Source: Mycolicibacterium alvei
Lineage (GTDB): Bacteria; Actinomycetota; Actinomycetes; Mycobacteriales; Mycobacteriaceae
Direction: 5' to 3'
Assembly: GCF_010727325.1 (NCBI RefSeq)
Contig: NZ_AP022565.1
Span: 1,736,001-1,800,000, forward strand
Length of the DNA: 64,000 nucleotides
Part shown: positions 40,062 through 44,844 of the stretch, in pieces
How positions within the stretch are numbered: the first letter of the stretch is position 1
How the letters are laid out: every line of letters begins with the position of its first letter
The notes under the pieces: model-generated
Database searches by the model: none
What the model was told of the DNA's origin: nothing
The model's input: only the letters and a program-made list of their open reading frames with translations
Made by a program: the position numbers and the translations under genes

Positions 40062-40817
40062 ATGACCGCTCCCCAACTCAATGCCGTCGCCCGCCAGAAC
40101 GTGACGTTGGAAAAATCCCCGAATTGGTGGGACCCCGACAGTGAGTGCACGATCATCGTGACCCGGCCGTCCGCCGAGCGCGAACTGTGGAACGAATACG
40201 TCCGCGGAGCCGAGACGAACTACCGCAAGCACGGCGTGGAAAAGGCATTGGACCCGAAAGCGCTACAGACAGGCGCAGATACGGCGCTGTTCTGTGTCGG
40301 AATCAACGACGCCGGCCGGGTTGTCGGCGGCCTGCGTGCCAAGGGGCCACACCGAAGCGTCGAAGAAAGCCACGCGATCGTCGAATGGAGCGGGCAGCCC
40401 GCACTCGACTCGGTGCGAAAAATGATCGAAGACCGCGTGCCATTCGGAGTGGTGGAGATGAAGACGGCCTGGGTATGCGACGACCCCGAACAGAGTCGCG
40501 CACTCACCGATACGCTGGCACGTACGCCGCTGCATGCCATGACGCTGTTGGACATTCAGTTCGTCATGGCCACCGCGGCGGCCTATGTACTGAAACGCTG
40601 GTTGTCTTCGGGCGGTGTGCTTGCCGCCAAGATCCCGGCGACACCCTATCCGGACCAGCGGTACCAGACAAAGATGATGTGGTGGGACCGAAGAACTTTC
40701 GCCAGCCACGCCGATCCGGGCCAGCTGTCGCGCTACTTCGCCGAGGCCCGGCGAATTGGCACCAACCCCCCAAGCGCCGATTTCGACGCCCTCACCTCCA
40801 CCCTGGCAGGACGATGA
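40062..40817 (+). CDS. protein of unknown function, GNAT/autoinducer-synthase-like
   Basis: 251 residues from ATG 40062, preferred over longer in-frame starts that run into the AT-rich leader. I do not firmly recognise it. The layout WNEYVRGAETNYRKHGV, then GRVVGGLRAKGPH near 86-98, the acidic HAIVEWSGQP, FGVVEMKTAWVCDD and HAMTLLDIQFVMATAAAYVL resembles LuxI-like or N-acyl amino acid synthases (GNAT fold: central G-G-x-R, then a Glu-rich strand and the helix before the acyl-carrier groove). No signal peptide. The stop overlaps the MoeY-like start, so it belongs to that operon. An acyltransferase role is inference. Confidence 0.6.
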   Translation: MTAPQLNAVARQNVTLEKSPNWWDPDSECTIIVTRPSAERELWNEYVRGAETNYRKHGVEKALDPKALQTGADTALFCVGINDAGRVVGGLRAKGPHRSVEESHAIVEWSGQPALDSVRKMIEDRVPFGVVEMKTAWVCDDPEQSRALTDTLARTPLHAMTLLDIQFVMATAAAYVLKRWLSSGGVLAAKIPATPYPDQRYQTKMMWWDRRTFASHADPGQLSRYFAEARRIGTNPPSADFDALTSTLAGR

Positions 40818-42964
40818 TCCCCGACGTGAGCGATCACAACGACCCCGACCAATACCGAGCGATATTCGTCGACCACGATGACCATTCGGGTGGCACCCTC
40901 GACCAGCTGCGCCGGGATCCGCGTATCACCGTCATCGACGAATGCCGCCAACAGCAGGCTGCGCTGCGCACGCTGGTGCCTGCGGTCGACACCGAGATGC
41001 TCGACGAGCCGACCCGGTGGGCGTACTACCCGTGGCGCCGGTGCCTGGTCCATATTCTGGGGCCGGCCGCGTTCACCCGGCTACGGCTGGATCGCAACCG
41101 CAATCTGATCAGTGCCGACGAGCAGCGCCGCCTTTCCACCCGGAAGATCGGCGTCATCGGCCTCAGCGTCGGCCATGCCATCGCCTACAACCTCGCCACC
41201 GAGGGACTGTGCGGCGAGATTCGACTCACCGACTTCGACGAGCTGGAGTTGGCGAACCTCAACCGGGTCCCGGGCACCGTGTTCGACCTGGGTGTGAACA
41301 AGGCCGTGGTGGCCGCCCGCCGGATCGCCGAGATCGACCCGTATATGAAGGTCCGTATCGATCGCAACGGCGCAGTGGCCGAGTCCATCGATCAGTTCCT
41401 GCGTGGCCTCGACGTCGTTGTCGAAGAATGCGACTCGCTGGACGCGAAAGTCCTTGTCCGCGAGGTCGCCCGAGCCCGGCGGCTGCCGGTGCTGATGACC
41501 ACCGGCGACCGTGGGCTGCTCGACGTCGAGCGGTTCGACCTGGAACCCGCGCGGCCGATCCTGCACGGTCTGCTCGGCGACATCGCCGCCCGCGACCTGA
41601 CCGGACTCAGCAGCAAGGACAAGGTGCCCCATGTCCTGCGGATCCTCGACGCGGCCCAACTCTCTCCCCGGATGGCGGCATCGCTGGTGGAGGTCGGCAA
41701 GACACTGAGCACCTGGCCCCAGCTCGCCGCCGAGGTCGTACTCGGGGCCACCGTCGTCGCCAATGCCGTGCGGCGCATCGGTCTCGGTGAGCCGATGCCG
41801 TCCGGGCGCGTGCGCATCGACGTCGCCGAAGCGCTCGACCGCATCGACGATCCACTGCGCAACGGATCCGCACTTCCACCCGTCGACGTCCCCATCGAAG
41901 TCCACACCGAACCGACCCGGCTGGCAGACATCCTCACCAACGCAGCGATACGCGCCCCGTCGGGCGGCAATGTCCAACCGTGGCTCATCGAGGCCAGCGA
42001 CGACCGGATCAATCTGCGCCTGGCGACGACGTGCACGACCACCATGGACGTCGGCTACCGCGGCAGCGCGGTGGCGCTGGGAGCGGCCGCATTCAATGTC
42101 CGGATCGCCGCGGCCGCTCACAACCTGACCGGGCACGTGCAGTGGTCCCGCGGCGACGAAGGCACGCCGCTGTGCGGAACCGTGGATTTCGTGCCCGGTA
42201 GCGCACCGCAGTTGGCCGAACTCTACGAACCGATGCTGGCCCGGGAGACCAATCGACTCCGGGGCACCTCGGCACCCATCGGCGCCGCCGTGATCGACGA
42301 CCTGCGGGATGCCGCCCGAAACGAGGGTGCCGAACTGAGGATCCTCGACGGGCGGGCCGAGATCGAAACCGCCGCACGCCTACTCGCCGAAGCAGACCGA
42401 ATCCGCTACCTCACCCCGACCCTGCACCGCGAGATGATGTCGGAGCTGCGCTGGCCCGGCGATCCGGACGCCGATACCGGTCTCGACGTGACCACACTCG
42501 GGTTGGATCCGGCCGACATGGTGATGCTCGATATTCTGCGTCGGCCCGACGTGATGGCGAAGCTGTCGGAGTGGAACGCCGGCGCGGCTCTCGGCGACGA
42601 CACCCATGAACGGGTCACCTCGAGCTCGGCGCTGGCCGTCGTCTCGGTTCGGGGCCGCCGGCTGACCGACTACGCGCTGGCCGGATCGGCGGTCGAGGCC
42701 GTCTGGGTCCGCGCCCAACGCCACGGGCTGGCGGTTCAACCGGTGTCGCCGGTGTTCCTCTACGCCCATGACGATGACGACCGCCAACTGCTCTCGCCCG
42801 ACCACGCCGACGCACTGGGCGACCTGCAGTACGCTTTTCGCAGGTTGACCGGCACCGAGCGCGACGAATCACTGGCGCTGGTGCTCAGGTTGTCCTACGC
42901 GCCGCGTCCGACCGTGCGCAGCAGACGTCGAGCCCGATCGGGTTCGGCACCGCAGTACGGCTGA
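40814..42964 (+). CDS. moeY: E1-like (ThiF) and nitroreductase fusion, Rv1355c/MoeY type
   Basis: 716 residues, the same size as M. tuberculosis Rv1355c (recalled as 715). The N-terminal 100 residues are unassigned. The ThiF-like adenylating domain spans about 105-330: RKIGVIGLSVGHAIAYNLA, LTDFDELELANLNRV (the Asp-x-x-Asn-x-x-Arg set) and EECDSLDAK. It lacks an obvious catalytic Cys after MTTGDRG and any CxxC zinc pair. A nitroreductase-like FMN domain follows from about 365 with IRAPSGGNVQPW. Despite the name there is no sign of molybdopterin synthesis nearby. ATP-dependent activation followed by a flavin redox step on a peptide or small molecule is the reading I favour. Confidence 0.8.
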   Translation: MIPDVSDHNDPDQYRAIFVDHDDHSGGTLDQLRRDPRITVIDECRQQQAALRTLVPAVDTEMLDEPTRWAYYPWRRCLVHILGPAAFTRLRLDRNRNLISADEQRRLSTRKIGVIGLSVGHAIAYNLATEGLCGEIRLTDFDELELANLNRVPGTVFDLGVNKAVVAARRIAEIDPYMKVRIDRNGAVAESIDQFLRGLDVVVEECDSLDAKVLVREVARARRLPVLMTTGDRGLLDVERFDLEPARPILHGLLGDIAARDLTGLSSKDKVPHVLRILDAAQLSPRMAASLVEVGKTLSTWPQLAAEVVLGATVVANAVRRIGLGEPMPSGRVRIDVAEALDRIDDPLRNGSALPPVDVPIEVHTEPTRLADILTNAAIRAPSGGNVQPWLIEASDDRINLRLATTCTTTMDVGYRGSAVALGAAAFNVRIAAAAHNLTGHVQWSRGDEGTPLCGTVDFVPGSAPQLAELYEPMLARETNRLRGTSAPIGAAVIDDLRDAARNEGAELRILDGRAEIETAARLLAEADRIRYLTPTLHREMMSELRWPGDPDADTGLDVTTLGLDPADMVMLDILRRPDVMAKLSEWNAGAALGDDTHERVTSSSALAVVSVRGRRLTDYALAGSAVEAVWVRAQRHGLAVQPVSPVFLYAHDDDDRQLLSPDHADALGDLQYAFRRLTGTERDESLALVLRLSYAPRPTVRSRRRARSGSAPQYG

Positions 42965-42996
42965 GTCACGTGCTGAGGTATAGGCGGAGGTATCTG

Positions 42997-44844
42997 GTGC
43001 CAGGCAGCCTCGAACTACTGGTCACATCGGTGGCCACGCAACTGATGGCGGTTGATGCCGCGACCTCGGTCCCGGTGAGCCAACAGGTGCTTGCCGAACT
43101 GATCTCGTTCTTCGACGTGGACGTGAGCTTCCTGCGTCACAACGATCATGCGGCGCACGCGACGCGGCTGGTGGCCGAGTGGCCGCCGCGCCCACCCGAC
43201 GCCCAGGCCGACCCGCTTGCGGTCATCCACTTCGCCGATGCCGATCCGGTGTTCGCGATGGCCGAGCACCTCAAGGAACCGGCGGTGTTCCGTCCCGAAC
43301 CGGCCACCGACGACTACCAGCGCACGATCGAGGCCGGACGCCACATCGCGAGCACCTCGATGGCCTGTGTGCCGTTGTTGTCCGCCGACATCACCACCGG
43401 TGTCCTGGGGTTCGTCAAGTTCGGCGACCGCGAATGGTTGCCCGCCGAACTCAACGCCCTCAAGGCGATCGCCTCCTTGTTCGCCCAGGTGCAGGCGCGC
43501 ATCGAGGCCGAGGACCGGTTGCGTTACCTCGCCGATCACGACCACCTCACCGGTCTGCACAACCGACGAGCGCTGATGGCCCACCTGGAGGCGCGGCTGG
43601 CACCGGGCCAACCCGGCCCGGTCGTGGTGATGTTCTTCGACCTGGACCGGCTCAAGGCGATCAACGATTACCTGGGACATACCGCCGGGGATGCCTTCAT
43701 CAGCATCCTGGCCGAACGGTTGCAGCACGGGGACGACCAACCCAAGCTCATCGCGCGGCTAGGCGGTGACGAGTTCGTCGTCGTCCCCGCGGCGTCGATG
43801 ACCGCCGAGGCGGCCACCGCACTGGCCTACCGGCTCCAGTCGGTGCTGCGCGAACGGGTCACCATCGACGGCGAGATGCTCACCCGCACCGTCAGCATCG
43901 GCTTGGCCGAGGGAATGCCAGGCCGCGACTCCACCTCCGATCTGCTCAACCGGGCTGACCACGCAGTGCTGACCGCCAAGAACTCCGGCGGCAATCAGGT
44001 CGCGGTGTTCTCCGATGCGATGGCGATGGAAATCGACTTCCGCAACGACATCGAGTTGCACCTGCAGAGCGTCATCGAGAGCGGGGCGCTCGTGTTGCAC
44101 TACCTGCCCGAGATCGACATGCGTACCGGCGAGGTGCTGGCCGCCGAGGCCCTGGTCCGCTGGCAGCACCCGACCCGCGGCCTGCTGTCCCCCGACTCGT
44201 TCATCGGCGTGGCCGAATCCATAAACCTAGCAGGCGAATTGGGGCGCTGGGTGCTGCGGAACGCGTGCGCCGAGTTCGCCCGGTGGCGGTCCAACGGTGT
44301 CGGCCGCAACATCGTGCTGCGGATCAACGTGTCGCCGGTGCAGCTGGTGACCGACGGATTCGTCGAGTCGGTGGCCGGCGTCATGAAGGAGTTCCGTCTG
44401 CCCCGCGGATCGGTCTGTCTGGAGATCACCGAGAGCATCGTGGTGCAGGACATCGAAACCACCCGTTCGACCTTGACCGGACTGCACAAGGTGGGCGTGC
44501 AGGTGGCCATCGACGACTTCGGCACCGGATACAGCGCGCTGTCGCTGTTGAAGTCCCTGCCGGTGGACACGCTCAAGATCGACCGCAGCTTTGTCGCCGG
44601 ACTCGGTTCAGACCCGGGCGATCTACCGATCGTGCGTGCGGTGATAGCCCTGGCCGGAGCCTTCGGGCTCCAACTGGTGGCCGAAGGCGTGGAGACCGAG
44701 CGGGCCGCGCTGACGTTGTTGCGGCACGGCTGCTACCGCGCACAGGGCTTCCTGTTGTCCAAGCCGATCCTCGGCCACGAGATGGCTGCGCTACTGACCA
44801 AAGGTCGGGTGGCAGTGCACTTCTCAGCCGCGCCGCGGACGTGA
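42997..44844 (+). CDS. dcpA: GAF-GGDEF-EAL c-di-GMP synthase/phosphodiesterase, DcpA type
   Basis: GTG 42997 is chosen for GGAGG 7 nt upstream; GTG 42970 would add nine residues. The 615 residues contain a GAF sensor at about 20-165, a GGDEF domain with intact LGGDEF near 256, and an EAL domain with intact AEALVRW near 382, KIDRSFVAGL and VAEGVETE. Both active sites look functional, so it can make and break cyclic di-GMP, as reported for M. smegmatis DcpA and Rv1354c. It follows the moeY-like gene by 32 bp, as in M. tuberculosis. Cytosolic: I see no membrane segment. Confidence 0.93.
   Translation: MPGSLELLVTSVATQLMAVDAATSVPVSQQVLAELISFFDVDVSFLRHNDHAAHATRLVAEWPPRPPDAQADPLAVIHFADADPVFAMAEHLKEPAVFRPEPATDDYQRTIEAGRHIASTSMACVPLLSADITTGVLGFVKFGDREWLPAELNALKAIASLFAQVQARIEAEDRLRYLADHDHLTGLHNRRALMAHLEARLAPGQPGPVVVMFFDLDRLKAINDYLGHTAGDAFISILAERLQHGDDQPKLIARLGGDEFVVVPAASMTAEAATALAYRLQSVLRERVTIDGEMLTRTVSIGLAEGMPGRDSTSDLLNRADHAVLTAKNSGGNQVAVFSDAMAMEIDFRNDIELHLQSVIESGALVLHYLPEIDMRTGEVLAAEALVRWQHPTRGLLSPDSFIGVAESINLAGELGRWVLRNACAEFARWRSNGVGRNIVLRINVSPVQLVTDGFVESVAGVMKEFRLPRGSVCLEITESIVVQDIETTRSTLTGLHKVGVQVAIDDFGTGYSALSLLKSLPVDTLKIDRSFVAGLGSDPGDLPIVRAVIALAGAFGLQLVAEGVETERAALTLLRHGCYRAQGFLLSKPILGHEMAALLTKGRVAVHFSAAPRT

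What the first reader, a model, noticed from the sequence alone, without database searches (positions are those of the whole stretch)
40062..44844. Operon linking an autoinducer-synthase-like protein, an E1-like/nitroreductase fusion and a c-di-GMP enzyme
Seen: three genes in one direction with 4-bp and 32-bp junctions. The first resembles LuxI/N-acyl amino acid synthases. The second fuses a ThiF adenylating domain lacking the catalytic Cys and zinc pair to a nitroreductase with IRAPSGGNVQPW. The third has intact GGDEF and EAL sites. Known: moeY (Rv1355c) and dcpA (Rv1354c) are neighbours in M. tuberculosis. Inference: the first two make a small signalling molecule by acyl transfer, adenylation and flavin redox, and DcpA's GAF domain senses it or its pathway, giving an undescribed signal-c-di-GMP circuit. 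The moeY name is probably misleading.
Basis: partly seen in the sequence, partly recalled or inferred. Interest (0 to 1): 0.75.

Follow-up and report, generated by a model that had tools for sequence, protein, structure and literature searches.

The report
Tryptophan-lipid operon tied to c-di-GMP
Three neighbouring genes in a fast-growing mycobacterium look set to make a recently described tryptophan-derived lipid and a c-di-GMP enzyme, and the two mostly stay side by side in the relatives examined even when the genes are rearranged, which suggests they work together.

Summary
The operon is real and as described: trzA (40062-40817), trzS (40814-42964, ATGA overlap) and dcpA (42997-44844, 32-bp gap). 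It notes next-door c-di-GMP genes in one sentence.

New here is a census. In 118 Mycobacterium genomes, 62 of 69 trzS places have a GAF-GGDEF-EAL gene within 12 kb, 51 directly downstream. Of 32 selected trzS places elsewhere, 31 have a c-di-GMP gene close by, in changed gene orders and with different enzyme types. Seven selected loci with no oxidase domain in a 7-kb stretch keep acyltransferase, ThiF and a c-di-GMP gene. In the window's genome DcpA holds the only EAL domain found. The four rows outside the TrzS clade of the ThiF tree show no such gene, over short flanks in two.

That DcpA's GAF senses the product is not supported: M. smegmatis DcpA's GAF is reported to bind GDP, and some other linked cyclases lack a GAF. 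The direction of coupling is open.

The parts
40062..40817 (+). trzA: N-acyl amino acid (tryptophan) synthase, 251 aa, LuxI/FeeM-type GNAT fold
40814..42964 (+). trzS: ThiF-like cyclase fused to flavin-dependent oxidase, 716 aa
   Evidence: NF005901, 1013.6 bits.
41066..41848 (+). ThiF domain of TrzS (adenylation/cyclisation); Asp207 conserved in at least 97% of 134 aligned sequences
   Evidence: Matching Asp207 to the tested Asp217 of M. smegmatis TrzS is by position (inference).
41879..42913 (+). flavin oxidase (nitroreductase/Acg-type) domain of TrzS, with IRAPSGGNVQPW at residues 379-390
42997..44844 (+). dcpA: GAF-GGDEF-EAL c-di-GMP enzyme, 615 aa; GGAGGT about 5 nt upstream of the GTG start
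   Evidence: PDB 5yrp, which I take to be the M. smegmatis DcpA EAL domain, 494.9 bits.
43024..43491 (+). GAF domain of DcpA
43510..44001 (+). GGDEF domain, intact GGDEF (43762-43776), no RxxD at the inhibitory-site position (DQPK)
44044..44790 (+). EAL domain, intact EAL (44146-44154); the only PF00563 match (E <= 1e-5) in the window's genome

Best explanation
This is a trzAS-dcpA operon. TrzA acylates L-tryptophan from a short or medium acyl-CoA. TrzS uses ATP to activate and cyclise the carboxylate into an oxazolone and then FMN/O2 to desaturate it, giving an N-acyl tryptazolone. These steps are shown in print for orthologues and inferred here by orthology. The third gene makes and breaks c-di-GMP. 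The pathway and c-di-GMP turnover form one functional unit in the TrzS lineage (inferred from the census). My guess at direction is that local c-di-GMP set by DcpA, or by the cyclase that replaces it, gates the synthesis or use of the acyl-Trp/oxazolone, because the catalytic c-di-GMP domains stay while the sensor parts change. No direct evidence for direction exists.
For: Orthology: NF005901 at 1013.6 bits, TrzA fold FeeM/LasI, biochemistry read in PMC12856293. Link: 51 of 69 trzS places in 118 Mycobacterium genomes have a DcpA-like gene directly downstream (gap -1 to 131 bp) and 11 more have one within 12 kb in other arrangements. Of 32 selected trzS places outside the genus, 22 have a dcpA-type gene directly downstream, 3 have it directly upstream of a trzA-trzS fusion, and 6 have a separate GGDEF gene within about 1.5 kb. 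All 7 ThiF-only loci that I fetched at 7 kb have TrzA plus a GGDEF or GAF-GGDEF-EAL gene. Ten loci keep trzA next to dcpA with trzS moved, cut to a remnant or not in the stretch (L148, L151, L153, L155, L183, L184, L185, L209, L210, L211). In the ThiF tree, 110 of 117 rows of the TrzS clade have a GGDEF or EAL gene in the stretch held, and one more (L018) shows the DcpA-type GAF before its contig ends. The only EAL gene found in the genome is here. 11 of the 66 trzS genomes have exactly one EAL gene (E <= 1e-20), and in all 11 it is the one at the trz locus (for five of them the EAL place was not printed and follows from the EAL domain of the trz-locus gene).
Against: Six in-clade rows lack a c-di-GMP gene within 8.5 kb or to the contig end: two trzA-trzS pairs in genomes with no EAL match at E <= 1e-20 (G218, G254) and four solitary trzS copies (L117, L130, L131, L134). 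Thus the pathway can exist without the partner. Much of the Mycobacterium count is shared descent, not independent events (6 label changes on the DcpA tree against 31 in shuffles). Places outside the genus were a selection: 65 of the 85 full-length ones were not read. Gene linkage shows no direct contact, regulation or direction.
Confidence: 0.72

Rival explanations
1. Product sensing: acyl-tryptophan or tryptazolone binds the GAF of DcpA and switches c-di-GMP synthesis or breakdown.
For: The GAF is well conserved and folds as a small-molecule GAF. At equal EAL divergence, linked GAFs are more alike than GAFs of unlinked paralogues, while GGDEF shows no difference (disjoint pairs, 29 v 21, p = 0.016).
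Against: The GAF of M. smegmatis DcpA is reported to bind GDP and inhibit the cyclase (review passage; original not held). By EAL score that DcpA falls in the trz-linked range (v). The rate difference does not repeat over all unlinked lineages. Linked cyclases in G743, G696, G799 and G796 have a hydrophobic N-terminus and no GAF match.
Confidence: 0.2
2. Co-regulation only: the genes share a promoter because both are wanted in stationary phase, starvation or stress; no molecule of one path acts on the other.
For: Tight junctions. In BCG lacking the neighbouring EAL gene (Rv1357c homologue), the trzA homologue is up about twofold (PMC6005825 ratio 1.999, PMC11126594 log2 0.87; passages), which a cis effect of the deletion could explain.
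Against: In several loci the linked genes are divergent or on opposite strands (L137, L141, L264, L268, L271), which a shared transcript does not explain.
Confidence: 0.3
3. Simple vertical inheritance of an old gene order with no function in the linkage.
For: The linked label is strongly clustered on the trees.
Against: Order and partner change while proximity stays: dcpA upstream instead of downstream in f61, separate GGDEF and EAL genes in other genera, trzA-dcpA kept after trzS moved. In 13 groups of loci compared (10 of them Mycobacterium), no flanking gene family outside the trio recurs in more than 6.
Confidence: 0.06
4. TrzS acts as a true E1-like conjugating enzyme on DcpA, as Cap2 does on a CD-NTase in CBASS type II (comparison recalled).
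For: E1-type fold next to a cyclic dinucleotide synthase.
Against: No CxxC pair; measured activity of orthologues is on acyl-tryptophan (PMC12856293).
Confidence: 0.02

Closest known systems
TrzAS tryptazolone pathway (Rv1356c-Rv1355c; M. smegmatis; R. jostii RHA1), PMC12856293
   Same: Same two proteins by family, fold and order; the published text already notes adjacent c-di-GMP genes rv1354c and rv1357c.
   Different: No chemistry was done on the window's proteins. The breadth of the c-di-GMP link, the TrzA-TrzS fusions and the oxidase-less loci are not in the abstract, Results or Discussion that I read; its supplement was not seen.
TyzACB (M. tuberculosis) and OxzAB (P. rubra) acyl-oxazolone pathways, PMC10404671 (passages read)
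   Same: Acyltransferase, ThiF and nitroreductase-type oxidase.
   Different: The tyz and oxz loci themselves were not fetched. Two outgroup loci (Streptomyces L069, Gammaproteobacteria L070) have no c-di-GMP gene in the 22.0 and 16.4 kb held.
DcpA/MSDGC-1 (MSMEG_2196) and Rv1354c
   Same: GAF-GGDEF-EAL; the EAL is close to the solved domain 5yrp (that 5yrp is M. smegmatis DcpA is recalled, the call names only 'Sensory box/response regulator').
   Different: In print as a c-di-GMP enzyme with a GDP-binding GAF (via review); the passages I read do not tie it to trzAS.
LuxI/FeeM acyl synthases
   Same: Fold.
   Different: No sequence family match; the substrate is acyl-CoA plus Trp in the orthologue.

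Membership tests
TrzAS tryptazolone synthases | ThiF-oxidase fusion of the Rv1355c family | tested here: met
   NF005901 1013.6 bits against a cut-off of 476
TrzAS tryptazolone synthases | Adjacent N-acyltransferase of FeeM/LuxI fold | tested here: met
TrzAS tryptazolone synthases | Catalytic Asp (217) of ThiF and Arg (540) of the oxidase, M. smegmatis numbering | tested here: inconclusive
   Asp207, Arg529 and Arg531 are conserved in at least 97% of 134 sequences, but the M. smegmatis sequence was not at hand for exact numbering
TrzAS tryptazolone synthases | Makes N-acyl tryptazolone | not testable with these tools
   Needs LC-MS
Canonical E1/MoeB adenylating enzymes | Zinc-binding CxxC pair (recalled as defining) | tested here: not met
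   No CxxC anywhere in the protein
DcpA-type GAF-GGDEF-EAL enzymes | Three domains in order with intact GGDEF and EAL motifs | tested here: met
   motifs intact in 99 and 100 of 104 linked relatives
DcpA-type GAF-GGDEF-EAL enzymes | GAF binds GDP | not tested
   Reported for M. smegmatis through a review

The most novel reading that the evidence does not exclude
TrzA, a ThiF cyclase and a c-di-GMP enzyme form an ancient three-part signalling module of Actinomycetota, in which the flavin oxidase is an optional add-on. The acyl-oxazolone (or acyl-Trp) and c-di-GMP act in one circuit, and loci without the oxidase make a saturated, reactive azlactone as the active molecule.
Probability: 0.3. Interest if true: 0.85.

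Novelty: new variant of a known kind. Interest (0 to 1): 0.6.

Why it matters
The role of acyl-oxazolones is open (PMC12856293, Discussion), and so, as far as I know, is the main cue for c-di-GMP in mycobacteria. A persistent physical link, kept through gene rearrangement and through exchange of the c-di-GMP enzyme type, says the two questions may be one. Both can be tested at once in laboratory strains for which mutants or assays are already reported.

Tried and rejected
GAF relaxation test: linked GAFs looked slower than those of unlinked paralogues. Lineage by lineage, several unlinked rows were not raised (L199, L195, L207, L208, L226, L179 at or below the linked median of 1.56), and all but one of 15 unlinked rows tested (L171, 2.26) lay below the linked 90th percentile of 2.12. 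I treat it as inconclusive.

First count of loci 'without dcpA' outside the genus was an artefact of short flanks (about 0.9-1.5 kb): five of them (L017, L236, L237, L249, L250) have a GGDEF gene 0.9-1.4 kb from trzS. L248 shows the end of a GGDEF gene at its edge. L245 (G800:C33) has none in about 5 kb on either side, and its ThiF falls outside the TrzS clade. Short ThiF-only loci: L233 has a GGDEF gene, L234 none in its 4.1 kb, and L028-L030 (weaker NF005901 matches, below the cut-off) none in their stretches; L028-L030 are not in the tree. In one search the group label 'dcpA-type' was a default: L233 (separate GGDEF) and L234 (none) carried it wrongly; one search rechecked every row by HMM.

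In one search two rows (L064, L169) were labelled unlinked only because the trzS half beside them lacked ThiF; I relabelled them from then on. G223 counts twice among the 69 trzS places because its gene is cut by a contig end. Of the 69, 67 were mapped (the window itself and G223:C82 left out); of 62 DcpA-like places not beside trzS, 58 were fetched.

Promoter scan found none, chance mean 0.7: uninformative here. Pfam on 62 TrzA relatives gave nothing consistent. Not tested: an oxidase elsewhere in the genomes of the oxidase-less loci; HD-GYP-type enzymes; genome-wide GGDEF counts other than in the window's genome. Paper searches for the link.

Full report
Observation. The window (a 6.0-Mb, two-contig genome) belongs to a mycobacterium: the nearest named TrzS sequences are 79-86% identical, from M. 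peregrinum, septicum, porcinum, setense, houstonense and similar fast growers ('fast growers' is recalled).

How firm is the c-di-GMP link within the genus? In 118 Mycobacterium genomes, NF005901 (E <= 1e-100) gave 69 places in 66 genomes, and DcpA-like proteins (E <= 1e-120) gave 124 places in 92 genomes. 51 of 69 trzS places have a DcpA-like gene directly downstream on the same strand (gap -1 to 131 bp), 11 have one within 12 kb in another arrangement, and 7 have none near. Of these 7, one is half of a gene cut by a contig end (G223), whose other half sits beside a dcpA-like gene; two are trzA-trzS pairs in genomes without an EAL match at E <= 1e-20 (G218, G254); four are solitary trzS copies (L117, L130, L131, L134). 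I mapped 67 of the 69 trzS places with 8.5-kb flanks where the contig allows and 58 of 62 DcpA-like places not beside trzS. In ten loci trzA sits next to dcpA while trzS is several kb away (L148, L151, L153, L155), reduced to a remnant (L183, L184) or not in the stretch (L185, L209, L210, L211).

Chance. The window's genome has three GGDEF matches and one EAL match at E <= 1e-5, the latter in this operon, so a c-di-GMP gene within 4 kb is expected at about 0.6%. Across the 118 genomes the EAL count (E <= 1e-20) runs from 0 to 14. Even at 14 per 6 Mb, a 24-kb stretch would hold one about 6% of the time (my arithmetic), against 62 of 69 seen. 26 genomes have exactly one EAL gene; 11 of these have trzS, and in all 11 the sole EAL gene is at the trz locus. 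The listing was cut, so for G088, G209, G266, G274 and G293 this rests on the EAL domain of the trz-locus gene itself. EAL and trzS co-occur (63 both, 3 trzS only, 36 EAL only, 16 neither; Fisher p = 0.0002, not corrected for descent).

Outside the genus. NF005901 at E <= 1e-100 occurs in 111 of 251 genomes and 16 of 31 genera of the family (Mycobacterium included) and in 16 of 396 genomes of the phylum. I examined 32 full-length trzS places outside the genus (L007, L015, L017-L019, L021-L026, L228-L232, L235-L250). 22 have a GAF-GGDEF-EAL-type gene directly downstream; in four of these the stretch ends before the EAL (L021, L229, L232 show GAF and GGDEF, L018 only the GAF), and in L026 the gene lies in two frames. 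3 (f61) have it directly upstream, 6 have a separate GGDEF gene within about 1.5 kb, and one (L245) has none. Of those six GGDEF proteins I scanned five: four have 180-285 residues before the GGDEF with 4-6 hydrophobic stretches and no GAF match, one (L264) has a weak GAF match below the curated cut-off. Two of the six loci (G743, G796) also have a separate EAL gene. These 32 are a selection meant to spread over genera: by my count 65 of the 85 full-length places outside the genus, and 3 of 10 outside the family, were not read.

Variants. In ten loci TrzA and ThiF-oxidase share one stop-free frame of 951-1021 codons: L058, L059, L062, L071, L228-L232 and one Mycobacterium, L116. Of these, L058, L059 and L062 are named Acidimicrobiales or Acidimicrobiaceae MAGs and L071 an 'Actinomycetes' MAG. 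Start codons were not established. In seven ThiF-only places fetched at 7 kb (L267-L273, chosen from the ThiF-only rows) there is TrzA and a GGDEF or GAF-GGDEF-EAL gene but no oxidase domain in the stretch.

History. On a ThiF tree (121 rows, FastTree) Streptomyces L069, Gammaproteobacteria L070, L245 and L234 stand apart from a supported clade of 117 rows. In that clade 110 rows have a GGDEF or EAL gene in the stretch held, L018 shows only the GAF, and six have none (L112, L119, L117, L130, L131, L134); the four outer rows have none, though L234 and L245 are short stretches. Some rows may be the same species seen under a name and under a handle. On the DcpA tree (115 rows) the linked label needs 6 changes against 31 in shuffles, with one large unlinked paralogue clade in Mycobacterium. 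So the link is old and mostly inherited, but gene order and even the kind of c-di-GMP enzyme have changed under it. Among 13 groups of loci (10 Mycobacterium, Nocardia, Rhodococcus, Acidimicrobiia and allies), after removing the trio, no other gene family recurred in more than 6, all six of them mycobacterial.

DcpA. GGDEF is intact in 99 of 104 linked rows and EAL in 100 of 104; RxxD at the inhibitory-site position is rare (RPGD in 3 rows among the commonest forms listed). The PDB EAL domain 5yrp, which I recall as M. smegmatis DcpA, scores 494.9 bits against the window protein, as a linked orthologue does (M. wolinskyi 497) and well above unlinked paralogues (394 at most) scored with the EAL piece alone. 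The review PMC8846402 (passages) cites GDP as an inhibitory ligand of that protein's GAF; the original paper was not held.

Mechanism. Shown in print for orthologues: acylation, cyclisation, desaturation (PMC12856293); c-di-GMP synthesis and breakdown by Rv1354c and its M. smegmatis counterpart (PMC2994820, passages, and start of abstract). Inferred: the window proteins do the same; pathway and c-di-GMP form one unit. I lean to c-di-GMP acting on the pathway, since the catalytic c-di-GMP domains persist while the sensor parts vary. Product sensing and mere co-regulation remain open. The BCG data (trzA homologue up about twofold when the next-door EAL gene is deleted; PMC6005825 and PMC11126594, passages) cannot separate a c-di-GMP effect from a position effect.

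Novelty. The pathway is known. In an open-licence library (subscription papers mostly missing) I found no paper that examines the c-di-GMP link beyond the sentence in PMC12856293. The breadth of the link, the fusions and the oxidase-less loci are what this work adds.

Noticed in passing
   Followed up: partly
G264: C1:1032799-1034616, C1:2375088-2376905, C1:2846268-2848085 (L109, L196): Three DcpA-like copies with the same score in one small genome; the copy in L196 lies beside fragments of trzS and of another dcpA.
   Followed up: no
L063 and L064 (Mycobacterium sp. DL99, one scaffold); G223:C72/C82; G183:C12/C14: trzS is split near the ThiF-oxidase boundary. In DL99 trzA-ThiF and oxidase-dcpA lie over 2 Mb apart on one scaffold; in G223 both breaks, and in G183 at least one, are at contig ends.
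   Followed up: no
L117, L130, L134 with L183, L184: Three solitary trzS copies group together on the ThiF tree; in two of the genomes (G266, G293) the operon's own trzS is only a remnant, as if the solitary copy had replaced it.
   Followed up: partly
L056, L057, L060, L065, L068: In these Rhodococcus/Rhodococcoides loci the trio is flanked by a further divergent GAF-GGDEF-EAL gene upstream and another GGDEF-EAL gene downstream.
   Followed up: no
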